Assembly: GCA_028280945.1 (NCBI GenBank)
Contig: JANQKV010000037.1
Span: forward strand, 1 to 64,000
Direction: 5' to 3'
DNA from: Opitutaceae bacterium
Lineage (GTDB): Bacteria; Verrucomicrobiota; Verrucomicrobiia; Opitutales; Opitutaceae
DNA: 64,000 nt
Within the stretch, counting starts at the first letter, position 1; each line of letters opens with the position of its first letter. Positions 1 through 16,176 of this stretch are shown piece after piece. A program made the translations under genes and the position numbers. The notes below the pieces were generated by a model. That model was not told the DNA's origin, searched no databases, and was given only the letters and a program-made list of their open reading frames with translations.

Positions 1-3000
1 AAACGCTGCTTGATCCGGCCGTCGTCATCGATGTCGGTGAATTTGGAGAAGGCGATGTTGAGTCCATTGGAACCGCGTTCTATCACGGTCTCAAGCCGGT
101 TGTCGGTGCGGTAGCCCAGCAGGCGCTTCGTCCCGTTGGGCCGGTCGATCTGGGTAAGCCGGCTGGCGTTGTCGTAATGATAGGTTGTCACGCGAAAGCC
201 GTCGGTAACGGTTCGTAGTCGGCCAAAATCATCGTAGCCGTAGGTCACCGTCTTCGCTCCGCCGGGATACACGATGGATTTAAGCCGGTCGTCCTCGTGG
301 TAAGTGTAATGGATCGTATTGCCTTCGCCGTCCTGATACTCTCGAAGTCGGTTCAATTGGTCGTAGGCACGGTAGGAGGTGCGGGTGGTGCCGGAGATGG
401 TCTCCGCTACGTTCTTGGGGAGTCCGTTGGCCCAGTAATCCCGAGTGACGCTGCCCACTCCATCGGAGATGGCCAGCGGACGGCCCTCGGCATCAAAGGA
501 GGTGATGTTGGTGATCTCGTTGGAGGCTTCGGTGATCTTGGCCACCAAGCCGCGCAAGTTTAGCTCGACGACATGGGATTTGCCAGTGGGGGTAGTGCGA
601 GTGACCTTGCGGTTGGCATCGTCATAAACGGTGGTGTAGTTCTTGCCCCGGCGGTTGTTGAGGTTGGTCTCTCGACCGTTTTTGTCGCGGGTGTAGGTGA
701 CGGTCTTGTTGAGGGCATCAGCCCATTCTTTCATCCGGCCGGCTTTATCGAACGTGGTGCTTGTGGTGTTCAGCAGGGGAGAGGTCACATCGGTCACGTT
801 GCCGTCGGCGTCGTAGGTAAAGTTGGTGGTCTTGCCCAAGGGATCCTTGGTCCAAATCCGCCGGAGGGCCTTGTCGTAGCCGTGCTCAACGACCGCTCCG
901 TTGGCATCGGTGGATTTCCAGAGCAGGTTTCGGTCGTCGTATTGGTTGGCCAGCACGGTGACTTGGGCAGAGCCACGCTTGATGGTGAGGAGGTGCCCAA
1001 GGGCATCGTAGGCGTAATCGGTCGTGCGGCCGGAAGCATCCACCGTATAGTCCACTGCCCCGGAGGCGTCATAGACGGTCTGGTCGACCGCCTGGGTGTT
1101 GTAGGTGGTCGAAGTAGGATCGGTGCTGTTATACCAGCGCTTGGTGTGGGTAAGCCGGCGCCGGTCGTTGTATTCAAACGTGGTCTTCTCCGAGCGCCGC
1201 CCGATGATTTCCTCCACGTCACCTCGGGAATTGTAGGTCATGGTCGTAGTGCCTCCGACCGGGTGGGTGATGGTCCGGGCGTTGCCATAGCTGTCGAAAT
1301 TACTGAAGGTGGTGGCGGAGGAGTCGGCGGGGGTCAGCAGGGAAGTTATGCGCCCGGTTCCGTCGTAGCCAAAATCCGTCACCAGGCCGCCGGGGGCAGT
1401 AATGGTATCGACGCTGTGCTGGGTGGTGTAGGTGATGACGGTTTCGTTGCCCTCGAAATCGTAGATCTTCCACGGTCTTTGCTCGCTGTCGGGCACGATG
1501 GAGCGGATATCGCCCAACGGATTCTTCTCCTGGGTGAGAACGTGGTGGGCGTTGTAGGTGTATTCCCAGAGACCCACCCGGGGGGTAATCATCCCCACTG
1601 TGCGGTCCCGGCCGTCGTAAAGCCATGAAGTGGTGTTGCCTTCCCCATCTATATGACGCACGCGGCGATATTTTTCGTCGAAGTGAGTCCACATCAGGTT
1701 GCCGTCGGCATCCGCCTCCCGCGCCATCCAGGGCGCGTAGCCGATCTCAGTCTCCTTGGACGCGACACCTTGGGGACGCTGGATATTAACCCGATCGAAG
1801 ACGTCGTAGTCGTTTTCGACCACCGTGCGATTGAGGGCATCCTTGACGCGAGTGACCCTGCCCAAAGTGTCAGCCTCAAAGGTCATGGCATAGGACTCGG
1901 GGCCGGTGATAGTGATATCGTTTACGCTGCGGCTGTAGGTAACGGTCCGCCCGGTGCTGTCGGTCACGGTCGACAAGGCGTCACCCGAGTAGGCAAAGGT
2001 CAGGGTGCGGTTGTAGCGATCCGTAACCGTCTGCAGTTTATTACCGGAATAACTAAGGGTCAGGGTATTGTTGTAAGGATCAGTGACCGTGGTCGCCTTG
2101 CCGTCGTTGGCCCGGAATGTAATTTCATTGCCGTGGCGAAACTCGAGGGTGTGAACTCCAGTGGTCTCGTTAAGCGAAAGAGTGATCGGCAGGCTGGAGG
2201 ACTGCATGAAGTCACCGTCGGGCAATCGGTCGAACTGAATGCGGCGTTCGCCGAGGGAAACGAGGCGTTTGGAGTCACGCAGGTGGCGGGCAGCAGCAGC
2301 GGTAGCGCAAGCGCGCAGAGCCACGTCTTTCGCGGTAGGACTGGCGGCGGCCGTATCAAGCAGGTATTGCAGCATCACGATCTGAGGGGCGAGCTCCGCT
2401 ACGGAGGCACGCCGCAGATCGGCTGCTGTGGACGGTAAGGTCGTGACAGATAGATCATAGCTGTGGGTCCACCCATCTCCGATCCCAGCTACATCCTTGC
2501 CGAGCCTCGCCGAAGAATAGTGGTTTGTAAATTCTATGCCATCCGGCCCGGAGTTTGAACCTAACGTCAGACCTGGCACATCATAGAGGAAGGATCCATT
2601 TGTTAAATCAACGGGATCTGCGGCAGTCGGGGGCTCGACCCCGTCCGGTGAATTGGTGTCCGTGTCATTAACGGATGTTTCGGTGACGTCCTCAGGGGTG
2701 GTTCCAGTATCTGGTGAGTTCCCTCCATTTAAACCTCCATCAATTAAATAAGCACCGCCCGCTCGCCATCCCGTGGAACTGAATTCAGGGACCACGTACG
2801 CGCCCCCTCCCGTGAGGCCGTTGCCATCATAAATAGCGTTTGAAAGCTCACTTGGAACGTAAGCCCACTTGTTGTTGTCCTGCACCGAGCTTTGCACCGA
2901 ACTAATCAAGCCATTAGCTTCACCAGAAACTCTCTTAATTTCAGTATCCCAGTTGCCAGCGGTAAGCCGGATAATCTTAGCCCCATTACGCAAGGCCGAC

Positions 3001-4826
3001 TCCAACACCGCCACTGTAGAGTAAGCAGTCACCCCAGTGGCCTGCTCCAAAACCAGGTGCTCCGTCGCAGATGCCCAATAATGAGCAGCATCCATGGCAG
3101 CAACCCTCTTTTCATCCCCAATAGTCTGCGAGAGGTTGCCCCTCATAAGTCGAGTTGTAACGAAGTTAGCCACTCCGTCGACGGTCCAAGCGCTTCCCGT
3201 ATATCTATACAGGGCGATGTTTGCATCCATAGCCAGATAAACATCGGACAGTGCTCCCGATATCTGCCTAACCATTTGATTATGTTGATAGCGCTCTAAA
3301 GATAATACGCTAAGTGTGCTATCGACTGATGCGGTGCTATCCGGATCAATCGCCGACTCCTTAGCTTGGAGCTTTCTGGCATATTCTATTCGACCTGAGG
3401 AATTAACAAAACTATTTGCGCCTATAACAATTCTACCGTTTCGATTAGAAATGGTCTTAGTTTTTACCGATTCGGATGAGGGTGCGGTCGGAAAAGTAAC
3501 TCCAATCTCCAAATTCAACTCGTTCTGATTTGATGTAAAACCACCTTCAGAAAGGATGCTACTGCCACCATTACGATAAAGATGTGCTTTTCCGTTTCCA
3601 TCAAATCCGATGGCCAAAATATCATCGGCGAGGTCACACCAGTTGATTGAAGTATCGCTAGTGCCCAACCGAATTCGTATCACCTGAGCTCGCGTAGCAG
3701 GAATTTCTGTTTGCGGGGTGTAACCAGAGTAACCCGTATTACTAATAACGGGCAAAGATCCTGCTCCGTCTTCATCCAGAACAGGGATTCCTAGGATTTC
3801 CCGAATGGACTTTTCGGTATGGTTTGCGGCAGCGTTTAACGAATAGTTTGCAATAATATTGCGCACATCATTCTGCATGCTGTCCACAAGAGCGGAGGTA
3901 GTGCTATAACTATCGCCCGATACGGTTCCTCCGGCAGCATTTGTGATGGATGTTGAACTGTATCCAGAAAACATACTGGCAACCTCAATTCGCGAAGAAC
4001 GCGAGGTTGCTTTATAAGCCGGATCCAAGTGATATGAATTGCCGTCAATGGTCAATTGAACCCATATCCGTTTTTTTCGAACTGAGTTTGCACCTACTGC
4101 CGTGCCCCACCGCAACCCGAGAGCAATCAAAGTATCCTCAGTATTATACACATCCCACCCGAGCCAATCTTCAAGTTGCTGATCCGTATACTCCTTGTAG
4201 CCCTCGTGATATTCAATATCACTTTCCGGCACACCCGATAATTTAAGCAATGAAACTAATAGAGCACATTGATCGTAGTCATTGCCTTGCATTTCGACTG
4301 CCGTAACATGCGCACCTTGGCGAAGTCCATAGTAAGGCACATATTCAACGTTGGTTTTTACCCAATTGAAGATTTGCAATGGATCATAGTTTAAACCCCA
4401 GGCGATTTCCGCCAAAAAGTCGGTTGATTGTTCACCCAAGCCCAAGGTCGGAGCACTTTGAGAGGTGGCTACGGTAACAGTTTCAGTTTCCGCCATGGCG
4501 TAAGCCACGGTCGGAACGCCTGTCATCTTGGCTGAGGTCTTGGGGGGCTTACGGACCCAGTCACGTTTCCGCATTGGCTTGAGTTGGTTTCGACCAAAGG
4601 CGGGCGGCGCAATGTTCTCGGTGGTGGGATTACGCAGACGGCCGCGTTGTTCCAGCTCGGTGCGCCACTTACTGCCCGGGGTCCAATCAACCTGAACCGT
4701 CTCGTTTAAGTCATTGCTCGCTGAACGCTCAGCTTGAGCTTGAAGGTCCAGCCCGGCCACCATCAAAGCAAAACCCAACCCCATAGCTTTAACCGATGAG
4801 TGAGAGAGGAAATCTAGATGCATCAT
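1..4826 (-). CDS. RHS/YD-repeat protein with transglutaminase-like region (3' end outside window)
   Basis: One frame stays open from the ATG at 4826 to the window edge (1608 codons visible); it has no stop here, so the ORF track omits it. Residues 1-33 look like a signal peptide (MGLGFALMVAGLDLQAQA). A transglutaminase-like core has Cys near residue 187 (DYDQCALLVSLLKLSGVP) and a later LDPAYK Asp motif, but the usual His before W-V is replaced (KRIWVQLTIDG), so catalysis is doubtful. The RHS shell starts near residue 735 (DPVDLTNGSFLYDVPGLTL) and YD repeats (TYDADGNV, GYDGTGRI) run to the edge. Known RHS proteins build hollow shells around a C-terminal effector; that variable tip lies outside the window, so toxin, adhesin or other roles cannot be separated. 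It begins 25 bp after the previous stop, with no Shine-Dalgarno. DNA from about 2450 to 4500 is visibly more AT-rich than the YD part. Confidence 0.9.
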   Translation of the reverse strand, partial: MMHLDFLSHSSVKAMGLGFALMVAGLDLQAQAERSASNDLNETVQVDWTPGSKWRTELEQRGRLRNPTTENIAPPAFGRNQLKPMRKRDWVRKPPKTSAKMTGVPTVAYAMAETETVTVATSQSAPTLGLGEQSTDFLAEIAWGLNYDPLQIFNWVKTNVEYVPYYGLRQGAHVTAVEMQGNDYDQCALLVSLLKLSGVPESDIEYHEGYKEYTDQQLEDWLGWDVYNTEDTLIALGLRWGTAVGANSVRKKRIWVQLTIDGNSYHLDPAYKATSRSSRIEVASMFSGYSSTSITNAAGGTVSGDSYSTTSALVDSMQNDVRNIIANYSLNAAANHTEKSIREILGIPVLDEDGAGSLPVISNTGYSGYTPQTEIPATRAQVIRIRLGTSDTSINWCDLADDILAIGFDGNGKAHLYRNGGSSILSEGGFTSNQNELNLEIGVTFPTAPSSESVKTKTISNRNGRIVIGANSFVNSSGRIEYARKLQAKESAIDPDSTASVDSTLSVLSLERYQHNQMVRQISGALSDVYLAMDANIALYRYTGSAWTVDGVANFVTTRLMRGNLSQTIGDEKRVAAMDAAHYWASATEHLVLEQATGVTAYSTVAVLESALRNGAKIIRLTAGNWDTEIKRVSGEANGLISSVQSSVQDNNKWAYVPSELSNAIYDGNGLTGGGAYVVPEFSSTGWRAGGAYLIDGGLNGGNSPDTGTTPEDVTETSVNDTDTNSPDGVEPPTAADPVDLTNGSFLYDVPGLTLGSNSGPDGIEFTNHYSSARLGKDVAGIGDGWTHSYDLSVTTLPSTAADLRRASVAELAPQIVMLQYLLDTAAASPTAKDVALRACATAAAARHLRDSKRLVSLGERRIQFDRLPDGDFMQSSSLPITLSLNETTGVHTLEFRHGNEITFRANDGKATTVTDPYNNTLTLSYSGNKLQTVTDRYNRTLTFAYSGDALSTVTDSTGRTVTYSRSVNDITITGPESYAMTFEADTLGRVTRVKDALNRTVVENDYDVFDRVNIQRPQGVASKETEIGYAPWMAREADADGNLMWTHFDEKYRRVRHIDGEGNTTSWLYDGRDRTVGMITPRVGLWEYTYNAHHVLTQEKNPLGDIRSIVPDSEQRPWKIYDFEGNETVITYTTQHSVDTITAPGGLVTDFGYDGTGRITSLLTPADSSATTFSNFDSYGNARTITHPVGGTTTMTYNSRGDVEEIIGRRSEKTTFEYNDRRRLTHTKRWYNSTDPTSTTYNTQAVDQTVYDASGAVDYTVDASGRTTDYAYDALGHLLTIKRGSAQVTVLANQYDDRNLLWKSTDANGAVVEHGYDKALRRIWTKDPLGKTTNFTYDADGNVTDVTSPLLNTTSTTFDKAGRMKEWADALNKTVTYTRDKNGRETNLNNRRGKNYTTVYDDANRKVTRTTPTGKSHVVELNLRGLVAKITEASNEITNITSFDAEGRPLAISDGVGSVTRDYWANGLPKNVAETISGTTRTSYRAYDQLNRLREYQDGEGNTIHYTYHEDDRLKSIVYPGGAKTVTYGYDDFGRLRTVTDGFRVTTYHYDNASRLTQIDRPNGTKRLLGYRTDNRLETVIERGSNGLNIAFSKFTDIDDDGRIKQR

Positions 4827-4851: not shown

Positions 4852-7800
4852 TTATTTCGCATTGCCAGCATCATCATAGCTGTAGCCCCGCTCCGGACTG
4901 CTTTTAAGCTGCCCGTTCTTGTCGTAATCGTAGTTTTGCGTATTTCCCGAAGACACATCCGTATCATCATTCGGATCCAATCCAGCCTCATACTCGAGTA
5001 GGTTGGATGCGCCGTCGCCGTCAGGGTCTCCCTCGGCTCCGTTGACACCATTCGGATCATTGGGGTCCAAACCGTGTTGGATTTCCCATGAATCCGGCAG
5101 TCCGTCCGAGTCTGAATCCCCATCCGGGATTTCAGTCGTAAAATCCCATACCGAACTGGCAGTGGATCCGTAGGCATTTACGGCGACCACTTTCCAATAA
5201 TACGTGGTGTTCATCACCAGTTCGCCCGGTGGGTCATAGCTGGTTCCTGACGGAACCGAAACGGCTGAATTGTTGTCCGGATTTGGATCGGTGCCAAAAT
5301 AGACATTATAAGACGTGGCGCCCGGGGCTGGACTCCATGAAACGGCACTGCTCAAGGAGACACTGAGACTACCATCGGAAGGACTGGGACCACTTGGTGC
5401 CGAAGGAGGCACCCCTATTGTGGTAAAGCTCCAGACCGGACCGGACGTGGAACCGTAAGCGTTTTTGGCCACCACCTGCCAATAATAGACGGTTTCCGGC
5501 TGCAGGTCCCCAGCTGGGTCGTAAGTGGTCCCCGAGGGAACTGAAACCGCCGGGTTGGTTCCCGGATCCGAATGGGTTCCAAAGTAAACGTCATATGACG
5601 TGGCGCCGGTGGCTGCACTCCACGAAACGGCACTGCTCAACGCCACATCAAGGCTGCCGGCGGCAGGACTGGGGCCACTTGGTGCTGATGGAGGAGCCCC
5701 CGTCGTAAAGCTCCAGACCGGGCCAGACGTGGAACCGTAAGTGTTCTTGGCCACCACCTGCCAATAATAGACGGTGCCCGGCTGCAGGTTCCCCGGCGGG
5801 TCGTAAGTGGTCGTGGTTTGGTTGCCTATGAGCTCGCTGGAGTCCGGGGTGGCATCCGTGCCAAAATACACATCATAGGATGAAGCCCCACTGGCTGCAC
5901 TCCATGAAAGCACGGCATCCAACAAAACATCGGAGCTGCCGCTGGATGGGCTCGGTCCACTTGGTGCTGACGGGGGCAGGCCGGTGGTAGTGAAGCTCCA
6001 GACCGGTCCCGGGTTGGAACCAAAGGCATTTTTGGCCACCACCTGCCAATAATAAACGGTTTCCGGCAGCAGGTCCCCTGTAGGATCGAAGCTGGTCGTC
6101 GACTGGTTGCCTACAAATTCGCCGGCATCCGGGGTCGAATCCGTGCCAAAATACACATCATAAGACGTGGCGCCAACGGCTACATTCCACGATACGGCAC
6201 TGCTCAATGCCACATCGATGCTGCCATTGGTTGGATTGGGGGCGCTTGGCACCGAGGAGGGAGGCACTCCGGTTGTGGTAAAGCTCCAGACCGGCCCTGA
6301 GGTGGAGCCGTAGGCATTCTTGGCCACCACCTGCCAATAATAGACGGTTTCCGGCAGCAAGTCCCCTGCTGGGTCGTAGCTGGTCGTCGCCTGGTTGCCT
6401 GCAAATTCGCCAGCATCCGGGGTGGCATCCGTGCCAAAATACACATCATAAGACGTGGCACCATTGGCAGCGCTCCATGAAACGGCACTGCTCAACGCCA
6501 CATCAAGACCACCGGAGGCAGGACTGGGCGCACCCGGGGCTGAAGTAGGAGGCACCCCGGTCGTGGTAAAGCTCCAAACCGGACTCGAAACTGGAGTTGT
6601 CGAGGTGTTCTTCGCAACGATCTGCCAATAGTAAGTCGTCAGGGGAGCGAGATCTCCGGGAGGGTCGTAGCTGGTGCCGGTCTGACTGCCGATAAATTCA
6701 CTGCTATCCGGGGTCGAATCAGTCCCAAAATAAACGTCGTAGGAATCCGCTCCGGCTGCGGCGGCCCACGAAATCGCCTGGGTAAACGGCCGGCCCGTGC
6801 TTCCGCTGGCGGGGTTGGGTGAACCCGGCGCATTGGGAGGCGTCTCTTCCATCCAGAGGCTCACGGTTTTGTTATGGCTCAATGGCGGACTTCCATCGTC
6901 CGTCACGGTCAGCTTGATCGGGTAGGTGCCCGTTACTGCATACGTATGATTAACGCTTACACCGCTCCCGGTGTTTCCATCACCAAACGTCCAGGCATAA
7001 GTCAGGTTGTCCCCATCGGGATCAGACGACGAAGAGGCATTGAGTGAAACTTGAAGATAATTCCGAGAGTAGGTAAACGCTGCGGTCGGCGCTTGGTTGG
7101 GTACATCCTGGATAGTAACAACATGGTTTTGGTTAGCCAATGTAGAATTTCCAGTGGAATTTCGAGAGACATCGCTATAACTCGCACTGAAGGTGACAGT
7201 GGCCGGTCCATTGTCAGATGTATTAACCTGAGTGCTAAACCAACCTGCAGACATAAAGGCCCCGTTTTTGTAAAGCGTAACGCGGGGAAGATGCGCGGAG
7301 TCCACGGCTACAGCTATATTGTACGTTGTGGCATGCGGAGCAGAAGTGGTGCCGGTCCACAGGTAGGAAACTGAGCGATAGGAAGCGCTGGCTGTTCCAT
7401 TGCCACTTCCCATCGTGAAAGTCGAATTTGGTTCGTGCAGATTGTTGATCGAACCCGAGCCTCCAACACTCCACGCATTAAAAACTTGGTTCTGCGCCGG
7501 GTTGTTCGCGGAAATCGAAACATTCGAACCGGCAGGATAATTGCCGCTGCCACTCCCGGAATAGACCGTCAGCTTGGGTTGAACCGTAACTTGGTATGAA
7601 GTATTAAAGTTAACTCTCAATTCGCCCACTCCGGGGTCTGTATGGTTACCCGCGTGGGAACTGTCAGCCAGTTGGCCCACGTAGAATGTGTAACTGTCGG
7701 GAGCATTTGGGGTCCATGGGGCGGACCCCCAGTTGGTTTGACCTACCACCGCAAATACCTTGGTGCCGCTGCCGTTGGTGGGAGGCGCGGATATGGAAGG

Positions 7801-8217
7801 AGCCCACGCCACCCCTTGGGAAATATTGAAATAATTTGAACTGGTGGGATCTGTCATCGGTGCTTTTACCACCGTGATCGTATAGGGAGAGCCGTTTACT
7901 TGGAGATTGCCGACGATGGGATCAGTCACGTTCCCGTGGTGGGAAGAGTCCGCCAACTGCCCAACATACATTGTGTAAGCGCCCGGGGCTGTGGGAGTCC
8001 AAGGTGCTGAACCCCAGTTGGTATAACCGGCAATGGCAAAAACCTTTGCTCCGGTCCCATTGCTGGGCGGAGCTGAAATCACAGGGCTGAAACTACTCCA
8101 TGCGGTAACTGTTGCATTGGAACTGGTCGGATTGACCATCGGGAGGGTCGCACCGAGTGTTTGCATCAACCCAAACACCGGGACCAAATACTTGGTAAAA
8201 CGAAGGGCTCTTTTCAT
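4852..8217 (-). CDS. Secreted multi-FnIII/PKD protein with Ca-binding repeats and a terminal YD repeat
   Basis: This 1121-residue exported protein starts MKRALRFTKYLVPVFGLMQTLGA, a signal peptide. Order of parts: two tandem copies of a roughly 95-residue module (both contain TNWGSAPWTP and GQLADSS), a linker, a PKD domain (DPDGDNLTYAWTFGDG), six FnIII-like repeats (each with SYDVYFGT, VYYWQVVAKN and VWSFTT), then thrombospondin-type-3-like acidic repeats (DGDSDSDGLPDSW, DPDGDGASNLLEYEAGLDPNDD), which in known families bind calcium. It ends NYDYDKNGQLKS...YSYDDAGNAK, one YD repeat like those of the adjacent RHS gene. No enzyme domain is visible; an extracellular structural or adhesive role is inferred. 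It lies between a redoxin-like gene (15 bp upstream) and the RHS gene (25 bp downstream), all on one strand, so cotranscription is likely. Confidence 0.85.
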   Translation of the reverse strand: MKRALRFTKYLVPVFGLMQTLGATLPMVNPTSSNATVTAWSSFSPVISAPPSNGTGAKVFAIAGYTNWGSAPWTPTAPGAYTMYVGQLADSSHHGNVTDPIVGNLQVNGSPYTITVVKAPMTDPTSSNYFNISQGVAWAPSISAPPTNGSGTKVFAVVGQTNWGSAPWTPNAPDSYTFYVGQLADSSHAGNHTDPGVGELRVNFNTSYQVTVQPKLTVYSGSGSGNYPAGSNVSISANNPAQNQVFNAWSVGGSGSINNLHEPNSTFTMGSGNGTASASYRSVSYLWTGTTSAPHATTYNIAVAVDSAHLPRVTLYKNGAFMSAGWFSTQVNTSDNGPATVTFSASYSDVSRNSTGNSTLANQNHVVTIQDVPNQAPTAAFTYSRNYLQVSLNASSSSDPDGDNLTYAWTFGDGNTGSGVSVNHTYAVTGTYPIKLTVTDDGSPPLSHNKTVSLWMEETPPNAPGSPNPASGSTGRPFTQAISWAAAAGADSYDVYFGTDSTPDSSEFIGSQTGTSYDPPGDLAPLTTYYWQIVAKNTSTTPVSSPVWSFTTTGVPPTSAPGAPSPASGGLDVALSSAVSWSAANGATSYDVYFGTDATPDAGEFAGNQATTSYDPAGDLLPETVYYWQVVAKNAYGSTSGPVWSFTTTGVPPSSVPSAPNPTNGSIDVALSSAVSWNVAVGATSYDVYFGTDSTPDAGEFVGNQSTTSFDPTGDLLPETVYYWQVVAKNAFGSNPGPVWSFTTTGLPPSAPSGPSPSSGSSDVLLDAVLSWSAASGASSYDVYFGTDATPDSSELIGNQTTTTYDPPGNLQPGTVYYWQVVAKNTYGSTSGPVWSFTTGAPPSAPSGPSPAAGSLDVALSSAVSWSAATGATSYDVYFGTHSDPGTNPAVSVPSGTTYDPAGDLQPETVYYWQVVAKNAYGSTSGPVWSFTTIGVPPSAPSGPSPSDGSLSVSLSSAVSWSPAPGATSYNVYFGTDPNPDNNSAVSVPSGTSYDPPGELVMNTTYYWKVVAVNAYGSTASSVWDFTTEIPDGDSDSDGLPDSWEIQHGLDPNDPNGVNGAEGDPDGDGASNLLEYEAGLDPNDDTDVSSGNTQNYDYDKNGQLKSSPERGYSYDDAGNAK
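5127..6845 (-). repeat. Six tandem ~285-bp FnIII-coding repeats
   Basis: Six consecutive units of about 95 codons each encode SAPSGPSP..GS.DVALSSAVSW...GATSYDVYFGT...YYWQVVAKN..GSTSGPVWSFTT. The inner units are close to identical in DNA over long stretches, for example the segment around ccaccacctgccaataatag, which recurs once per unit with few changes. The outermost units are more diverged. This pattern indicates recent duplication or gene conversion and predicts copy-number variation between strains. Confidence 0.85.
7590..8145 (-). repeat. Tandem duplication encoding two N-terminal modules
   Basis: Two adjacent units of about 95 codons encode the same pattern, PTSSN....WSSFSPVISAPPSNGTGAKVFA..G.TNWGSAPWTP.AP..Y..YVGQLADSSH.GN.TDP.VG.L.VN. 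I do not recognise the module as a named domain. Boundaries are approximate. Confidence 0.7.
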
Positions 8218-8232
8218 CAGTATAGTCGGGGC

Positions 8233-9267
8233 TCAGGGTTGTGATCCAAATAACCGGTAGTCCTCCACTGCCTTTGGGGTAAGCGCTACCGCCACGATGA
8301 CTCCTGCGCTGTCCACCAAATAGGTCATTCCGGGCTGATTGAGATGGAGGGCGCTGCTTAACCGCATTTGCGGATCATCCTGGAGCAACAGCCCGGGCAG
8401 GTCATAATAGTTTGGTTTCCCTCGACCTCCTCCCCCTTGATCGCCATTTTCCAAGTTGATCCCTATCTGCTGCACTTGGGGATCCAGGCGCTCGGCCAGC
8501 GACTTTGCCATGAACTGGGACGAGGGGTCTTCACTCGACCAGGTGTAGACCACAACGGGAACGTTCGGCGTGAGCTGCCGAAGGGCAGCCTGGTCCTGTG
8601 GCCTCAAGAGTTGAGCCAGATTTTGGCCGATCAGCCCCAATCTGGCCTGCTCCGCCATCGCGGCTGTTTTGAGGTGTTGGGGGGTGTTTGCATTCGAGAT
8701 TACCTTCGACAGGATGGCTGACGCATCGACCGGCTCGCTGACGCGCGCGATGCCAATCAGGGATTCGAAGCCTGTCTCCCAGCTGGGAAACTCTTTGGAT
8801 ATACGCTCCGCTCCCTCTGCAAAAGCCTTGATGCGTTCTCCGTGCCCTCGGAACGGTCGTTGTTCGATGGCGGTGTTCTCGGCCGTCGCAACCACCTCTG
8901 CTCTGAGTTCAACCGGAACCGTGGTATCTGCCCTGACGCTCGCTACTGCGGCCTCCCGCCGACTCTGCTGCGACCGGTCCCCCGCCTTCCATGCTTTTAC
9001 CAGACTCAAAGCCTCGTAGGCGCGGGCCTTCGAAGCAGCGGAGTGTCCGGGGTTTTCCGAATAAAATCCCCGGAAATCATCAGCCAATGCGATTTCTCCC
9101 TCGGCCCCGCGCGGGGAATTATCCCTGGATCTCGGCTCAAGTTCTCCCCACCGCTGGTCAGGGGTCTTGGCGAGGTCGGACTGGGCCAAGAGAGCTGCCC
9201 CGGTTACAAAAAAGGCAAGCACCGCACCTTGAGTGCGGAAGAGTTTAAGAAATTGCTGAATTTTCAT
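8233..9267 (-). CDS. Exported thioredoxin-fold (redoxin-like) protein lacking CXXC
   Basis: I place the start at the ATG at 9267 (MKIQQFLKLFRTQGAVLAFFVTGAALLAQS), a clear signal peptide, rather than the longer ORF start at 9417, whose first 50 residues look non-coding. The mature protein has about 200 residues of charged, helical sequence, then a thioredoxin-like domain in the last 130 residues: a beta strand VPVVVYTWSS, a helix, a central region ending PGLLLQDD, and GMTYLVDSAGVIVAVALTP, which matches the strand-turn-strand after the cis-Pro of TlpA-like proteins. The redox site is absent: WSSEDPSS stands where W-C-x-x-C would be, so thiol-disulfide chemistry is unlikely. It is first in the three-gene exported-protein cluster, 15 bp before the FnIII gene. 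The function is unknown. Confidence 0.7.
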   Translation of the reverse strand: MKIQQFLKLFRTQGAVLAFFVTGAALLAQSDLAKTPDQRWGELEPRSRDNSPRGAEGEIALADDFRGFYSENPGHSAASKARAYEALSLVKAWKAGDRSQQSRREAAVASVRADTTVPVELRAEVVATAENTAIEQRPFRGHGERIKAFAEGAERISKEFPSWETGFESLIGIARVSEPVDASAILSKVISNANTPQHLKTAAMAEQARLGLIGQNLAQLLRPQDQAALRQLTPNVPVVVYTWSSEDPSSQFMAKSLAERLDPQVQQIGINLENGDQGGGGRGKPNYYDLPGLLLQDDPQMRLSSALHLNQPGMTYLVDSAGVIVAVALTPKAVEDYRLFGSQP

Positions 9268-10053: not shown

Positions 10054-10262
10054 CCTTTGGCGAAGGGCGATGAGCCAGGCATTGGGGGATTGAGTCGGGC
10101 GTAAGCGATCTTCGCTCCCGAAACAACGGAGGACTCACAGCCGAAATTCTCGCCTCTCCGTGAAATCGAAATCTGTTAGTTCAAGTAAGCCAAGGACATG
10201 ATCGATCCACTATTTCCGAAGGATCATTGCCTGTGGAACCGTCCCTATCACGCTTCCCCTTA

Positions 10263-10988
10263 ATGCCTTCCTCTCAAAGTGTAGACAACCCACTCGTGGT
10301 CGCTCGTGACTTGGCCAAGATTTATGGTTCGGGTCACGCGGCGGTGCATGCGTTGCGGGGCGTGGATCTGGATCTGCCGCGCGGGGAATTGATTGTGCTC
10401 CTAGGTGCATCGGGCTCGGGAAAGTCCACCTTGCTCAACCTGATCGGAGGTTTGGACAACCCGACGCGGGGCCGGCTCGAATACCGGGGTTGGGACGTGG
10501 CCAAGGCCGATGAGGAAGGACTGACCGCTTATCGCCGCGATGTGGTGGGTTTCGTGTTTCAATTCTACAACCTGATCGCGAGCCTGACCGCCCGCGAAAA
10601 CATCGCTCTCATCACCGAGGTTTCGCGGGATCCCATGTCGCCCGATGAAGCGCTTAAACTGGTCGACCTGACGGATCGGGCGCACCACTTCCCGGCACAG
10701 TTGTCGGGGGGCGAGCAGCAGCGGGTCGCCATTGCCCGCGCCATCGCCAAGCGACCGGAACTGTTGTTGTGCGACGAACCCACCGGCGCCCTCGATGTGA
10801 AAACCGGCATGCTTGTGCTGGAGGCGATTCAGCGGATCAACCGCGAGATCGGCACCCTCACCCTCGTGATCACCCACAACGCCGTGCTGGCCGAAATGGC
10901 GGACCGTGTCTTCACCATGTCCGACGGCCAGCTTGAACTGGCGCGGGTCAACACCAGCCCCCGCCCCGTTCGGGAACTTTCGTGGTAA
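10263..10988 (+). CDS. ABC transporter ATP-binding protein (MacB/LolD type)
   Basis: This 241-residue ATPase is the energy subunit of an FtsX/MacB-class ABC system. Walker A is GASGSGKST, the Q-loop is FVFQFYN, the signature is [14 protein letters not shown], Walker B is [12 protein letters not shown], and the switch His is in VITHN. I start at the ATG at 10263 ([19 protein letters not shown]); the ORF track starts 12 codons earlier at a TTG. It is followed after 18 bp by the permease gene and then an adaptor gene, so the three form one operon. MacB-class systems use ATP to drive conformational change across the periplasm (efflux of peptides or drugs, or lipoprotein release). The substrate is not evident. 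Confidence 0.9.
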
Positions 10989-11006
10989 CCAACAATCGGA
11001 TACGAA

Positions 11007-13370
11007 ATGGATCTGCTGGACCTTAAACTGCTGCGCGACCTGCGCGCGTTGAAGTCGCAGGCCTTGGCGGTGTCGCTGGTCATGGCCTGCGGTCTGGCCA
11101 TGATGATCATGACCCGCAGCCTGATCCAGTCGCTCAACGAGGCGCGCGAGGGTTATTATGAGAAACACCGCTTCGCCAAGGTCTTTGCCGAGTTGAAGCG
11201 AGCTCCCGCAAGTCTGCGTGAACAAATCGCGGCCATACCCGGGGTTGCCGCCGTGGAAACCGGCATCGAGGTGAGTGTAACGCTCGATCTGCCCGACTTG
11301 ATCGAGCCTGCTTCGGGACTGATCAACGCGGTGCCGGAACGCCGGCCGGTGCTGCTCAATCAGCTCTACCTGCGCCGGGGCAAACTGCTCGAAGGGACGG
11401 GCACCGGCGAAGTGCTCGTAAGCGAAGCATTCGCCGAAGCAAACCGACTGGAACCCGGCGATGAAATTGCGGCGATTTTGAACGGCCGGCGGCAGGAACT
11501 GCGCGTCGCCGGGATCGTGCTCGCTCCGCAATACGTGTTTGAGGCCCGGCCCGGATCGGCGCTGCCCGACAACCGGACTTTTGGCATATTTTGGATGCGC
11601 GAACAGGAACTGGCCGAAGCGTTCAACCTCGAGGGCGCGTTCAACGACGTTGCCCTTTCGCTGGCGCCGGGAGCTTCGGAGCCGGAGGTCATCGCGGCAT
11701 TGGACCGCCTGCTCAAACCCTACGGAGGACTGGGCGCCTACGGTCGCTCGGAACATCCTTCGGACATCCGGGTTGACGATGAAATTCGGGTGCTGGAAGG
11801 CCTGTCGTTCGGCTTTCCGCTGGTGTTTTTGAGTGTGGCGGCGTTCATGACCCACTCGGTGATGAGTCGGCAGATTGCGTTGCAACGCGAACAGATCGCC
11901 ATCCTCAAGGCCTTTGGTTTCGCGAACCGCACCATTGCCTGGCACTTCATCAAGTTTGCCCTTGTCATCGTGGTCGTGGGCACCGGCCTGGGCACCCTCG
12001 GCGGGTTCGCCCTTGGACTGCAGCTGGTCGACATGTATCACCTGTTCTTCCGGTTTCCCGCGTTGGAGTTTGTGCCGGCAACGGGAGCGATTGCCGGCGC
12101 CCTGGTCGCGAGTTCGGCAGCCGCCCTGATCGGTGTTGCCAGTGCGGTGCGCAAAGTCGTGCGGCTGTCGCCGGCCCAGGCCATGCGGCCGGAGCCACCG
12201 GCGAGTTTTCGTCCCGCCATCGCCGAACGTATGGGATTGGCGCGCTACCTGACGGTTTCGGTGCGCATGGCGCTGCGCAATATCGAACGGAAACCCTGGC
12301 AGGCCGTCTTCACGTGCGCGGCGCTCGCCATGGCCACGGGTATCCTCATTATCCCCAACGCCTTCCGGGATGGCGTGAGGCACATCCTGGATTTCCAGTG
12401 GGACATCGTGCAGCGCCAGACCGTCACGGTTTCCCTGGTCGAACCGGGTCCGCTGCGGGCGGCTCATGACTTCGCCCAATTGCCCGGGGTCATCCACACG
12501 GAGCCCTTTCGCACTGTGTCGATCGAGATGTCCGCCGGCCATCAGTCCCGGCGGCTCGCGCTGCACGGGGTGATCGATCGGGGCGACCTCAATCGAGTGA
12601 TCGGGCGGGACGGGCGCCCGTTCTCCGTGAAGGGACAGGGGCTCATCATTTCCGAAGCCCTCGGTGAAACCCTTGGTATCCAACCTGGCGATACGGTATC
12701 CATTCAGGTATTACAGGGCCGGCGGCGCGAGGTGGCGCTGCCGGTGGGGGGATTTTCGCAGGACTTCGCCGGCATAGCCGCGTTCATGGAACTGGACGCC
12801 CTCAACCGCCTGCTGGGTGAAGGCGACCGGATCACGGGCGCGTTCATGAGCGTCGCCGGCGGGCAGTGGGACACGTTTTTGCACAGTCTCAAGGAGACGC
12901 CGCAGGCCGCGGGGGTCGTGATCAAAAACGCGATGCGGCAGAGCTTCCGCAAAACGACCGCCGAAAGCATCGGCCTGATCCAGGTCATCTACTCGACCTT
13001 CGCCACGGTGGTGGCGTTTGGCATCGTCTACAACAGTGCACGCATCGCGCTTTCGGAACGCGCCCGCGAACTGGCCACACTGCGGGTGCTGGGTTTCAGT
13101 CAGGGCGACGTTGGCAGCGTATTGGTCGGCGAACTGGTGCTGCTGGCCGCCATCGCCCTCCCCCTCGGCCTGTGGGTCGGCTCCGGCATGGCCGCGCTGT
13201 TGATCGAAAGCATCAATACCGAAACCGTGCGTCTTCCGCTGGTGCTGTCTTCGTCCAACTACGCCTATGCCACCCTGGTGATTGTGGTCGCGACCACCTT
13301 CTCGGCGCTGGTCGCCTGCCGAAAACTCAACCAACTCGATTTGGTCGGAGCCTTGAAAGCGGCCGAGTGA
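11007..13370 (+). CDS. FtsX-family ABC transporter permease, two FtsX domains
   Basis: The 787-residue inner-membrane protein starts MDLLDLKLLRDLRALKSQALAVSLVMACGLAMMIM, an N-terminal transmembrane helix. A large extracytoplasmic domain follows (about residues 50-250), then three helices of a first FtsX domain (FGFPLVFLSVAAFMTHSVM and after). A second copy has its own N-terminal helix (AVFTCAALAMATGILIIPN), periplasmic domain, and C-terminal helices (IQVIYSTFATVVAFGIVYNSARIALSERARELATLRVLGFS, a diagnostic FtsX stretch). This double-FtsX layout matches permeases found with HlyD-type adaptors. It is partnered by the ATPase upstream and the adaptor 33 bp downstream. Confidence 0.9.
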   Translation: MDLLDLKLLRDLRALKSQALAVSLVMACGLAMMIMTRSLIQSLNEAREGYYEKHRFAKVFAELKRAPASLREQIAAIPGVAAVETGIEVSVTLDLPDLIEPASGLINAVPERRPVLLNQLYLRRGKLLEGTGTGEVLVSEAFAEANRLEPGDEIAAILNGRRQELRVAGIVLAPQYVFEARPGSALPDNRTFGIFWMREQELAEAFNLEGAFNDVALSLAPGASEPEVIAALDRLLKPYGGLGAYGRSEHPSDIRVDDEIRVLEGLSFGFPLVFLSVAAFMTHSVMSRQIALQREQIAILKAFGFANRTIAWHFIKFALVIVVVGTGLGTLGGFALGLQLVDMYHLFFRFPALEFVPATGAIAGALVASSAAALIGVASAVRKVVRLSPAQAMRPEPPASFRPAIAERMGLARYLTVSVRMALRNIERKPWQAVFTCAALAMATGILIIPNAFRDGVRHILDFQWDIVQRQTVTVSLVEPGPLRAAHDFAQLPGVIHTEPFRTVSIEMSAGHQSRRLALHGVIDRGDLNRVIGRDGRPFSVKGQGLIISEALGETLGIQPGDTVSIQVLQGRRREVALPVGGFSQDFAGIAAFMELDALNRLLGEGDRITGAFMSVAGGQWDTFLHSLKETPQAAGVVIKNAMRQSFRKTTAESIGLIQVIYSTFATVVAFGIVYNSARIALSERARELATLRVLGFSQGDVGSVLVGELVLLAAIALPLGLWVGSGMAALLIESINTETVRLPLVLSSSNYAYATLVIVVATTFSALVACRKLNQLDLVGALKAAE

Positions 13371-13403
13371 TGCGCTGAGTAATCCCCTGCCACACCTCCT
13401 GCC

Positions 13404-14648
13404 ATGGCCGAAGCCGACAATACTCCCTTTGATCCCACCATGGGCGACCAGCATCAGCGTCGCCGCAAATGGTGGCGTTACGTGGCCGGCACCGTACTGG
13501 TCGCGTTGATTGTGGCAGGCATGTGGCCTTCCGCGATTCCCGTGGAAACGGATTTGGTGCGGCGCGGGGATTTGGTCGTCACCGTCAATGAAGAGGGCAT
13601 GACCCAGGTGCGCCATCGGTATGTGGTTTCAGCGCCGGCTGCCGGCCAACTCCGCCGGGTCGACCTCAAGCCCGGAGCCACGGTGATCGCGGGCGAAACG
13701 GTATTGGCTGTGCTCGAACCCGCAGGAGGCGACATCCTGGACCGCCGCAGCCGGGCGCAAGCTGAGGCCCGCGTGCGGGCGGCCGAAAGCCAGGTCGCCC
13801 AGGCCGAGGCTCAGCGGGAACGCGCGGCGGCCGCCCTCGACTTGGCCCGCGCAGAGGCGAAACGGCAAGGCGCCCTCGCCAACCAAAATCTCATTTCCCA
13901 ACAACAGCTGGATGTGACACTCAACCAGGAACGCACAGCCGCCCAGGACGACCGCGCGTCGGCTTTTGCCCTGCAAATCGCCCAACATGAACTGGAACAG
14001 GCGCAGGCGGTCTTGGACCGGGGGAGCAGCTCCGCCGCCGACCCGAGAGCGTTGATCACCCTCACCTCCCCCGTGAATGGCCGGGTGCTGCGGGTCATGC
14101 AGGAAAGTTCCCGCGTCGTCACCAGTGGCATGCCGATTCTGGAGGTGGGCGACTCCACCGACCTGGAAGTCCGGGTCGAGGTGCTTTCGCGCGACGGCGT
14201 TGCCATCGAGTCGGGCGCCCGGATGTGGCTGGAACAATGGGGCGGCGACGATGAATTGGAGGCGCGCGTGCGTTGGGTGGAACCGGCTGCCTTCACGAAG
14301 GTTTCGGCCCTCGGTGTAGAAGAGCAGCGGGTGAATGTGCTGGGCGACCTTGTTTCACCAGTCGAGGAACGCACCGCTCTGGGCGATGGGTTCAGGGTGG
14401 AAGCCAGAATTGAAAAAGCGCGCCTCGAGGATGTGGTCATCGCACCGGCGGGAGCCCTCTTCCAAAATGGCGAAGCATGGTCCACGTTTGTGGTCGCAGG
14501 AGGTGTGGTTGAACGGCGGCCGGTAGAGGTCGGCCTCACCAACGGGCTCGAGACTCAGATAACCTCCGGTTTGGAAACGGGCGAGGAGCTGGTGCTCTAC
14601 CCGGGGGACCGGATTATCGACGGTGCCCGGGTCGCCCCATTGGACTGA
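13404..14648 (+). CDS. HlyD/MacA-type periplasmic adaptor subunit
   Basis: 414 residues: a cytoplasmic N-terminus, one transmembrane helix (YVAGTVLVALIVAGMWPS, residues about 28-45), a lipoyl-like half (VSAPAAGQLRRVDLKPGATVIAGETVLAVLEP), a long Ala/Arg/Gln-rich coiled-coil hairpin (about 110-215, QAEARVRAAESQVAQAEAQR), the second lipoyl half (LTSPVNGRVLRVMQESSRVV), then beta-barrel and membrane-proximal domains. It would bridge the ABC permease to an outer-membrane channel. No TolC-like gene is adjacent, so the channel must be encoded elsewhere. It is last in the ABC operon; a hairpin at 14686-14703 follows. Confidence 0.88.
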   Translation: MAEADNTPFDPTMGDQHQRRRKWWRYVAGTVLVALIVAGMWPSAIPVETDLVRRGDLVVTVNEEGMTQVRHRYVVSAPAAGQLRRVDLKPGATVIAGETVLAVLEPAGGDILDRRSRAQAEARVRAAESQVAQAEAQRERAAAALDLARAEAKRQGALANQNLISQQQLDVTLNQERTAAQDDRASAFALQIAQHELEQAQAVLDRGSSSAADPRALITLTSPVNGRVLRVMQESSRVVTSGMPILEVGDSTDLEVRVEVLSRDGVAIESGARMWLEQWGGDDELEARVRWVEPAAFTKVSALGVEEQRVNVLGDLVSPVEERTALGDGFRVEARIEKARLEDVVIAPAGALFQNGEAWSTFVVAGGVVERRPVEVGLTNGLETQITSGLETGEELVLYPGDRIIDGARVAPLD

Positions 14649-14685
14649 CCCTTAACCATCTGCCCTCCAACACTAAACGACGGCA

Positions 14686-14703
14686 TGTCACCATAATGGT
14701 GAC
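14686..14703. terminator. Palindrome after the ABC operon, possible terminator or REP element
   Basis: tgtcaccataatggtgac: gtcacc and ggtgac can form a stem with loop ataat, followed by tttta. It lies 38 bp after the adaptor stop. The U-run is short, so termination would be weak. The same TGTCAC-N7-GTGAC core recurs inside oleD, which favours a dispersed repeat. Confidence 0.4.
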
Positions 14704-14817
14704 TTTTAATCCGTGAACGGGAAAGGGTTGGAGACAGAGGTCGAGAGTGTGCGGAGCTGATGCCTGCGCGAAATGGCTTTGCTTTGCAGGGGCAAGCGCG
14801 TTCGGTCTGACAATTCG

Positions 14818-16176
14818 ATGCCCTCGCCTACCGACACAATCGCAGCTCCCGCCACCCCGACCGGCACATCCGCCGTGGCGCTCGTGCGGGTGAGCGGACC
14901 TGCCTGTCTTGAGCTGGGACCCGCGATCTTCCGTGAGACCCTGGAGCCGCGCGAGGCCACCCACCTGCCCTACCATGATCAGGCGGGTGAGATTGTGGAC
15001 GATGTCCTGGTGACCTACTTTGCCGAACCCCGCTCCTACACCGGCGAACACGTCTTGGAGATTTCGACCCACGGCAACCCAGCGATCATTCAACTTGTTC
15101 TGGATGATCTATTTAAGCGAGGTTGCCGAGCGGCGGATCCCGGTGAATTCACCCGGCGGGCTTTCCTCAATGGCAACCTTGACCTGAGCCAAGCCGAGGC
15201 GGTGATGGACCTGATCCATGCGCGCAGTGCACGGGCAATCGCAGCAGCGAACCAGCAGCTTCGAGGCAGCTTGGGGCAACACATGGCCAAGATCACGGAC
15301 GAGTTGCTGCTCGGTTTGGCTCGAGTGGAAGCCTACATCGACTTCCCCGAGGAAGATCTGCCGACGGAAGATCGGCGGATTGTGGCCGAGCTTTTGGACT
15401 CTGTTCTACGTGGAACAAAACGCCTCCTGGCGACCCACCGCTATGGTGACATGCTACGCGACGGGATCAAAACCGTGATACTGGGCGAACCCAACGCCGG
15501 CAAAAGCTCATTGATGAATGCGCTGCTGGGCCGGGATCGAGCGTTGGTCAGTGACCAACCCGGCACCACCCGTGATTATTTGGAGGAAGCCGTCATGGTC
15601 GGCCCGCACTGGCTGCGGCTGATCGACACAGCCGGGCTCAATCCGGATCCGGGCGAGATCGAACGCCAGGGCATCGCCAAAACCTTTGAGCGGGTGGCGG
15701 AGGCGGATTTGGTTCTACTCGTCTTTGACGTGACTCGCCCCACTCCACCGTTGCCGGGCGAACTCAGGGGCCGGCTGAATCCGGAACATACGCGAATTCT
15801 GCTCAACAAGGTCGACCTCTTGGAACGTTCGGCGGCGAAGGCGGTCGCGCCGGAAGGCTTCAAGAGCCTGGAGATTTCGGCGTTAACAGAGACTGGATTG
15901 ACCGATCTCGAAGCGGAAATCGTGGCTTGGGCGGATGCCTTGGGACCGACCAATCAGAACGATCAGATCGCGGTGAATGCCCGCCATGCCGACGCCCTGC
16001 GCCGGGCGATTGAAGGGCTGGAATCCGCCCTCACCCACTTGGGTGCAAACGGTCCCACCGAGCTGATGGCAAGTGATCTGCGCAGCACTTTGGAGGCATT
16101 GGGAGAAATCTCCGGGCGCATCGACAACGAAGAGGTGTTGGATCGCCTTTTTTCCACCTTTTGTATTGGTAAATAA
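14818..16176 (+). CDS. mnmE: tRNA modification GTPase MnmE
   Basis: With MnmG, MnmE installs the (carboxymethyl)aminomethyl group on U34 of certain tRNAs. I start at the ATG at 14818 (MPSPTDTIAAPATPTGTSAVALVRVSG), matching the family N-terminus; the track's start adds 15 non-homologous residues. Visible parts: the N-terminal folate-binding domain with GEFTRRAFLNGNLDLSQAEAV, a helical domain, and a G domain with G1 GEPNAGKSS, G2 region GTTRDYLEE, G3 DTAG and G4 NKVD. The C-terminus ends in the family's FCxGK signature (FCIGK), whose Cys is functionally important. Its stop TAA directly abuts the mnmG ATG, so the two are translationally coupled. A one-mismatch parS-like site lies inside the gene at 15402. 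Confidence 0.97.
   Translation: MPSPTDTIAAPATPTGTSAVALVRVSGPACLELGPAIFRETLEPREATHLPYHDQAGEIVDDVLVTYFAEPRSYTGEHVLEISTHGNPAIIQLVLDDLFKRGCRAADPGEFTRRAFLNGNLDLSQAEAVMDLIHARSARAIAAANQQLRGSLGQHMAKITDELLLGLARVEAYIDFPEEDLPTEDRRIVAELLDSVLRGTKRLLATHRYGDMLRDGIKTVILGEPNAGKSSLMNALLGRDRALVSDQPGTTRDYLEEAVMVGPHWLRLIDTAGLNPDPGEIERQGIAKTFERVAEADLVLLVFDVTRPTPPLPGELRGRLNPEHTRILLNKVDLLERSAAKAVAPEGFKSLEISALTETGLTDLEAEIVAWADALGPTNQNDQIAVNARHADALRRAIEGLESALTHLGANGPTELMASDLRSTLEALGEISGRIDNEEVLDRLFSTFCIGK
15402..15417. promoter_or_regulatory. Degenerate parS-like site inside mnmE
   Basis: tgttctacgtggaaca differs at one base from the bacterial parS consensus TGTTNCACGTGNAACA (CACGTG core changed to TACGTG). It is read in frame as SVLRGTK. 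It lies 1.5 kb from the perfect site in mnmG, which raises the chance that it is a real secondary ParB site. Confidence 0.4.

What the first reader, a model, noticed from the sequence alone, without database searches (positions are those of the whole stretch)
4852..9267. Three-gene exported cluster: CXXC-less redoxin, FnIII/PKD protein, RHS shell
Gaps of 15 and 25 bp, the same strand and signal peptides on all three suggest one secreted system. The redoxin-like protein has WSSEDPSS where the active CXXC should be, so it is more likely a structural or chaperone-like partner. I know no described system with this trio.
Basis: partly seen in the sequence, partly recalled or inferred. Interest (0 to 1): 0.6.

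Follow-up and report, generated by a model that had tools for sequence, protein, structure and literature searches.

The report
Exported RHS toxin operon with pseudo-redoxin
Three neighbouring bacterial genes look like an exported toxin-delivery set (a giant RHS shell protein, a long stalk protein that pairs with it, and a thioredoxin look-alike that has lost its chemistry and probably helps assemble them), and the thioredoxin look-alike turns up with such sets again and again, but only within one bacterial family.

Summary
The trio is real. g1 (8233-9267, minus) is a Sec-type exported, cysteine-free redoxin relative; g2 (4852-8217) is a PKD/Fn3/TSP3 stalk; g3 (<3-4826) is an RHS shell that runs off the contig. 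The suggested neighbourhood test is passed in one direction. In Opitutaceae, 52 full-length g1 relatives were examined: none has CXXC, 47 are followed at once by a large, usually exported ORF, and of 33 with at least 8 kb downstream 24 precede an RHS gene. The 29 lower-scoring TlpA-type relatives (18 with CXXC) never do (0 of 18; p = 1.7e-7). The reverse fails: 0 of 20 RHS genes sampled elsewhere in the family, and only 2 of 4 RHS loci in this genome, have g1. g2 and g3 are a matched pair: g2's C-terminal tail type tracks the shell class (16 of 16 and 6 of 6), and g2-g3 are fused in several relatives. g3 belongs to the known Sec-exported RHS polymorphic toxins with a degenerate transglutaminase domain. 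New here are g1 (helical solenoid plus redox-dead thioredoxin domain, most likely a dedicated periplasmic assembly chaperone) and the split stalk joined by a short tail. The mechanism is inferred, not shown.

The parts
8233..9267 (-). g1: exported, cysteine-free pseudo-redoxin; residues ~36-210 helical solenoid, ~217-340 TlpA/ResA-like thioredoxin domain with WSSEDPSS in place of WCxxC
   Evidence: ORF; profile hit to DsbE/TlpA/ResA; AF2 model and Foldseek matches to TlpA/ResA/CcmG domains and, more weakly, TPR solenoids; 52 relatives without CXXC
4852..8217 (-). g2: exported stalk of 1121 aa; N-terminal repeated beta domain, PKD (~374-442), array of Fn3-like domains, TSP3-type calcium motifs (~1034-1090)
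   Evidence: Pfam PKD_4 7e-19, fn3 3e-10, TSP3_bac 1e-3
4852..4938 (-). C-terminal YD-type tail of g2 (...NTQNYDYDKNGQLKSSPERGYSYDDAGNAK), proposed docking tail for the RHS shell
   Evidence: found in only 7 ORFs of >=200 aa in all loci examined; 6 lie directly upstream of the 6 transglutaminase-RHS genes
3..4826 (-). g3: exported RHS shell protein, at least 1608 aa, cut by the contig end; expected C-terminal toxin domain and any immunity gene are missing from the assembly
   Evidence: RHS_repeat 3e-40 with 11 stretches, YD_repeat_2x 8e-23, DUF6531 2.5e-5; contig starts at base 1
3930..4376 (-). degenerate transglutaminase-like domain of g3 (about residues 151-299; Cys and Asp kept, catalytic His lost)
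   Evidence: Transglut_core in 3 of 5 relatives, best 6e-5; alignments

Best explanation
The trio is a Sec-exported RHS polymorphic-toxin operon with two dedicated partners. g3 folds outside the cytoplasm into a closed RHS cocoon that would enclose a C-terminal toxin (missing here because the contig ends). g2 is the surface stalk or adhesin, in effect the N-terminal delivery part of the toxin encoded as a separate chain. It holds the cocoon through its C-terminal tail just after the calcium-binding TSP3 motifs, much as the cleaved N-terminal part of the T6SS effector RhsA stays attached by its seal peptide and anchor helix. g1 is a redox-dead, periplasmic chaperone-like protein (helical solenoid plus thioredoxin fold) descended from TlpA-type thioredoxins. 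It would bind g2 and/or the unfolded shell after Sec export and keep them competent until the stalk-cocoon complex is assembled and passed across the outer membrane (secretins are present; no T6SS Hcp was found). Shown here: gene order, loss of CXXC across the family, linkage, tail-shell matching, fusions. Inferred: export, cocoon, docking, chaperoning, antibacterial use.
For: Linkage: 24 of 33 g1 loci with >=8 kb downstream carry an RHS gene (11 of 18 in loci not used to build the profile) against 0 of 18 TlpA-type controls, p = 1.7e-7. g1 and the next ORF overlap by 4 bp in 17 loci. CXXC: 0 of 52 against 18 of 29. Fold. g2-g3 are fused into one ORF in several relatives, e.g. L009, L012, L013, L048, L049. 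g2 tail type follows shell class: short 'LKIHRP/LIAYSP' tail 16 of 16 with one class, YD tail 6 of 6 with the transglutaminase class, two of these (L145, L153) found only through g1. Relatives with complete shells end in the RHS-core signature (NRYSYV.NNPL...DP.G) followed by differing C-terminal domains (lipase-like, metallopeptidase-like by eye, DUF637-like and others), as expected of polymorphic toxins. g1 also accompanies SpvB/FG-GAP/TcdB-type shells in L009 and L055. No Hcp in this genome; three secretins. RhsA precedent: PMC8765631. Redox-dead thioredoxin+TPR chaperone precedent: CnoX, PMC6282202.
Against: Most RHS genes in the family lack g1, so g1 is not generally needed. Some g1 genes (L051, L125, L128, L129) sit with 1.6-1.7 kaa fn3/He_PIG-type proteins without RHS. 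The toxin end and any immunity gene of the window's own g3 are unseen. Linked genes inherited together could give the tail-shell match without any contact. The thioredoxin half of the AF2 model is of moderate confidence (pLDDT about 50-78). Nothing experimental supports binding or chaperoning.
Confidence: 0.5

Rival explanations
1. g1 is a permanent structural part (cap or linker) of the mature exported stalk-cocoon particle, not a transient chaperone.
For: g1 is exported, directly upstream and often translationally coupled to g2. Thioredoxin and TPR-like folds are common interaction modules.
Against: Related g2-g3 pairs exist without g1. g1 is never fused to g2 or g3 in the loci seen, whereas g2 and g3 do fuse.
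Confidence: 0.2
2. The RHS/stalk proteins are surface adhesins or matrix structures (attachment, gliding, substrate binding), not toxins; g1 helps them fold.
For: Large Fn3/PKD/TSP3 arrays are typical of adhesins; g1 also accompanies large Fn3/He_PIG proteins without RHS; the window's own toxin end is not visible.
Against: Relatives end in diverse C-terminal domains after a conserved shell end, some followed by short ORFs where an immunity gene would be; RHS plus degenerate transglutaminase is an established polymorphic-toxin layout (PMC3482391).
Confidence: 0.15
3. No functional link: g1 is a decaying TlpA paralogue that hitch-hikes with an exchangeable RHS locus.
For: RHS loci are mobile and often lack g1; in some loci a TrwC relaxase lies close to g1.
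Against: 0 of 52 CXXC with full-length frames and conserved positions over a group with about 15-30% identity to the window protein; 47 of 52 immediately upstream of a large or contig-cut ORF; among the loci examined, g1 stands apart from such a gene mainly where an IS or integrase gene follows (L046, L133) or the contig ends.
Confidence: 0.07
4. g1 acts as a self-protection or regulatory factor of the operon, for example a periplasmic immunity-like protein.
For: Constant position before a toxin-type gene.
Against: Immunity genes usually follow and vary with the toxin end; g1 precedes and is one family across different C-termini.
Confidence: 0.05

Closest known systems
Sec/T2SS-type RHS polymorphic toxins with inactive transglutaminase N-domain (Zhang et al. 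2012, PMC3482391)
   Same: Signal peptide, transglutaminase-like domain missing a triad residue, RHS array, Ig-type domains nearby, variable C-termini in relatives
   Different: Stalk is a separate upstream gene with a matching tail; a pseudo-redoxin gene precedes it
TlpA/ResA/DsbE (CcmG) thioredoxins
   Same: Thioredoxin fold, periplasmic type; profile and fold matches
   Different: No CXXC, no cysteine at all in the window's g1; N-terminal helical solenoid; tied to RHS/stalk genes
CnoX/YbbN chaperedoxin (PMC6282202)
   Same: Thioredoxin domain without a working CXXC combined with a TPR-like helical domain
   Different: CnoX is a stress holdase working with GroEL and DnaK, domain order is reversed, motif is SXXC; g1 has a signal peptide and sits in a toxin-type operon; homology beyond the fold not shown
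T6SS Rhs effectors such as RhsA (PMC8765631)
   Same: RHS cocoon; the N-terminal part can be a separate chain held by a seal peptide and anchor helix
   Different: No PAAR found in g3, no Hcp in the genome; Sec-type signals instead
TcB/TcC-type (SpvB, FG-GAP, TcdB, RHS) proteins
   Same: In relatives L009 and L055 the g1 module sits with such a shell
   Different: The window's g3 has no SpvB/TcdB domains; no TcA detected, but that search had no positive control

Membership tests
RHS polymorphic toxin (Sec type) | RHS/YD repeat shell | tested here: met
   RHS_repeat 11 stretches, E 3e-40
RHS polymorphic toxin (Sec type) | N-terminal signal peptide followed by transglutaminase-like domain lacking a catalytic residue | tested here: met
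   Transglut_core weak in the window (E 0.012-0.016), 6e-5 in a relative; His lost in the window, at least one triad residue lost in 4 of 5 relatives aligned, L153 keeps all three; signal peptide judged by eye
RHS polymorphic toxin (Sec type) | Variable C-terminal toxin domain after the shell | tested here: inconclusive
   Window g3 is cut at the contig end; present and diverse in relatives
RHS polymorphic toxin (Sec type) | Immunity gene downstream | not testable with these tools
   Sequence missing here; short ORFs follow in some relatives such as L009 and L123, without Pfam match where tested
TlpA/ResA/DsbE redoxin | Thioredoxin fold and family similarity | tested here: met
TlpA/ResA/DsbE redoxin | CXXC active site | tested here: not met
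   0 of 52 relatives; no Cys in window g1
CnoX/YbbN chaperedoxin | N-terminal thioredoxin plus C-terminal TPR domain | tested here: not met
   Both kinds of domain are predicted but in reverse order
CnoX/YbbN chaperedoxin | Holdase activity with GroEL | not testable with these tools
   needs purified protein
T6SS Rhs effector | T6SS present and PAAR/VgrG link | tested here: not met
   No Hcp in the genome while the E. coli control rings; no PAAR in g3
Tc toxin B/C component | SpvB, FG-GAP and TcdB domains before RHS | tested here: not met
   absent from window g3; present in L009, partly in L055

The most novel reading that the evidence does not exclude
g1 founds a new class of exported, redox-dead thioredoxin-plus-solenoid chaperone dedicated to assembling giant Sec-exported cocoon toxins (both transglutaminase-RHS and SpvB/TcdB-RHS types), with the delivery stalk supplied as a separate chain docked through a shell-specific C-terminal tail.
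Probability: 0.35. Interest if true: 0.68.

Novelty: new variant of a known kind. Interest (0 to 1): 0.52.

Why it matters
How RHS toxins without a T6SS or T7SS get folded, held and displayed after Sec export is poorly understood. If right, this names a candidate dedicated periplasmic folding factor and a two-chain stalk-cocoon design that can be tested by gene deletion and pull-down in cultured Opitutaceae, and gives another case of a thioredoxin fold losing its redox chemistry to serve a toxin system.

Tried and rejected
T6SS effector: rejected (no Hcp, no PAAR). Active redoxin: rejected (no cysteine). Obligatory trio across the phylum: rejected; g1 above 150 bits is found only in Opitutaceae (388-genome phylum sample), and distant hits are ordinary TlpA-type proteins not near RHS. 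Anti-phage defence: no PADLOC match. Plasmid or phage origin: no tblastn match for L050 g1 in plasmids or window g1 in phages. Dead ends: scan of genome contigs with single g1 and alignment A1; AF2 of the g3 transglutaminase region from one sequence gave pLDDT 30 and is not used; PDB searches with the g3 N-terminus; promoter/terminator scan no better than shuffles; TcA search without positive control. The tree of g1 and TlpA-type relatives separates the two groups, but the split has low support (0.58). The RHS call is a motif count, checked by Pfam on several loci only.

Full report
Observation. The three reading frames, their strand and their 15 and 25 bp gaps are as described. The stated interval holds g1 and g2; the RHS gene g3 lies to the left (<3-4826) and is cut off, because window base 1 is base 1 of its contig. 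g1 as a single sequence matches nothing in Pfam, NCBIfam or the PDB. With relatives it resolves: a 20-member profile hits DsbE, TlpA and ResA structures (best E = 2e-6), aligning the family's WSxxxP to their WCPxC, and members hit Redoxin, AhpC-TSA and Thioredoxin_8. The window's g1 contains no cysteine. An AF2 model from five sequences (mean pLDDT 76) shows a confident all-helical solenoid (residues ~36-210, pLDDT mostly 85-96) and a less confident thioredoxin domain; Foldseek finds thioredoxin-like, ResA and CcmG domains for the latter and TPR-type proteins more weakly for the former.

Neighbourhood test. Searches of the order (373 genomes), family (252) and phylum (388) were made with g1 profiles, and up to 20 kb was fetched around the hits. 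Scores fall into two groups. Above 150 bits: 52 loci, 0 with CXXC, 47 with a large (>=400 aa) or contig-cut ORF immediately downstream, 17 of these overlapping g1 by 4 bp; of 33 loci with at least 8 kb downstream, 24 have an RHS-type ORF on the same strand (11 of 18 in loci not used to build the profile). Below: 29 loci, 18 with CXXC, 0 of 18 near RHS. Fisher p = 1.7e-7 for RHS linkage, not corrected for relatedness. RHS was called by counting YD motifs; Pfam confirmed several cases. Above-threshold g1 genes were seen only in family f1, which is Opitutaceae judging by the record titles of loci found by a separate route. The exceptions are informative: L046 and L133 have integrase or transposase genes next to g1; L051, L125, L128 and L129 have a 1.6-1.7 kaa Fn3/He_PIG-type protein without RHS.

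The link is one-way. Of 20 RHS genes taken from other Opitutaceae genomes none has g1 upstream (several come from the same genomes), and in this genome RHS loci C56 and C59 have a g2-like gene but no g1, while C28 has g1 with a fused g2-g3. So the core is g2-g3, and g1 is an added module.

g2 and g3 belong together. In L009, L012, L013, L048, L049 and others g2 and g3 are one ORF. Where separate, g2 ends shortly after TSP3-type motifs in one of two tails. A short hydrophobic tail (LKIHRP, LKVNTP, LIAYSP) goes with one shell class in 16 of 16 pairs. A YD-like tail, as in the window, is found in all six g2 genes upstream of transglutaminase-RHS genes (window, L008, L010, L011, L145, L153) and once more before another RHS gene (L068), and in no other ORF of >=200 aa in the loci examined. 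Some pairs are near-duplicates (L010/L011, L050/L124), and joint inheritance could produce the match, so docking is a hypothesis.

What g3 is. RHS repeats, DUF6531 and a degenerate transglutaminase-like domain behind a signal peptide fit the Sec-exported polymorphic toxins with 'inactive transglutaminase' described by Zhang et al. (PMC3482391). In the window Cys and Asp are kept and His is lost; L153 keeps all three. Relatives with complete shells end in the RHS-core signature followed by differing C-terminal regions. L009 and L055 have SpvB/FG-GAP (and in L009 TcdB) shells instead, so g1 is not tied to one shell type.

Mechanism. In T6SS RhsA the N-terminal part is cleaved yet stays attached through a seal peptide and anchor helix (PMC8765631). 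I propose that the g2 tail does the same job between two separately exported chains. g1, with helical solenoid plus thioredoxin fold and no cysteines, is best read as a chaperone or assembly factor; E. coli CnoX shows that a thioredoxin domain without a working CXXC joined to TPRs can be a holdase (PMC6282202), but with the domain order reversed and another setting, so this is analogy, not membership. No T6SS Hcp was found and secretins are present. Steps shown: gene order, family-wide CXXC loss, linkage, tail-shell matching, fusions. Steps inferred: export, cocoon, docking, chaperoning, toxicity.

Verdict. The shell is a known kind; the split stalk with shell-specific tail and the dedicated pseudo-redoxin are, as far as the searched literature goes, undescribed. 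Novelty: new variant of a known kind; interest 0.52.

Noticed in passing
L047:2391-5291, L050:16244-19177; L053:3-2165 by similarity: TrwC/MobF relaxase genes lie close to g1 in some Opitutaceae, hinting that some of these loci ride on conjugative or integrative elements (Pfam tested on L047 only).
   Followed up: partly
L008, L009, L013, L045, L046 (and L122 by eye): LuxR-type regulators, mostly response regulators, sit near g1 or RHS genes; none was seen next to the window trio.
   Followed up: partly
L051, L125, L128, L129, L130, L060: A variant g1 locus without RHS: g1, then a 1.6-1.7 kaa Fn3/He_PIG-type exported protein with a conserved C-terminus (RWLHSDFR...), then further exported genes where sequence is available.
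   Followed up: partly
L102:13895-15058: Full-length g1-like protein with both the N-terminal region and an intact CXXC, not near RHS, in another part of the phylum: a possible picture of the ancestral redox-active form.
   Followed up: no
G002:C1 around 3304517-3304945: An RHS-containing open frame of 5605 aa.
   Followed up: no
L122:3407-6222 and L049:17640-18692: Tail-fibre-like exported proteins with a shared C-terminal coiled-coil (KIEELTL...) lie near RHS loci.
   Followed up: no
L012:3497-8275, L013:2707-7314: A ~1.5 kaa exported glycine-rich/TSP3 protein precedes g1 in two loci and may be a further member there.
   Followed up: no
window 10227-16176: Next to the trio on the other strand: an ABC-transporter cluster (MacAB-like by eye) and mnmE, so the trio sits in an ordinary chromosomal setting.
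   Followed up: no
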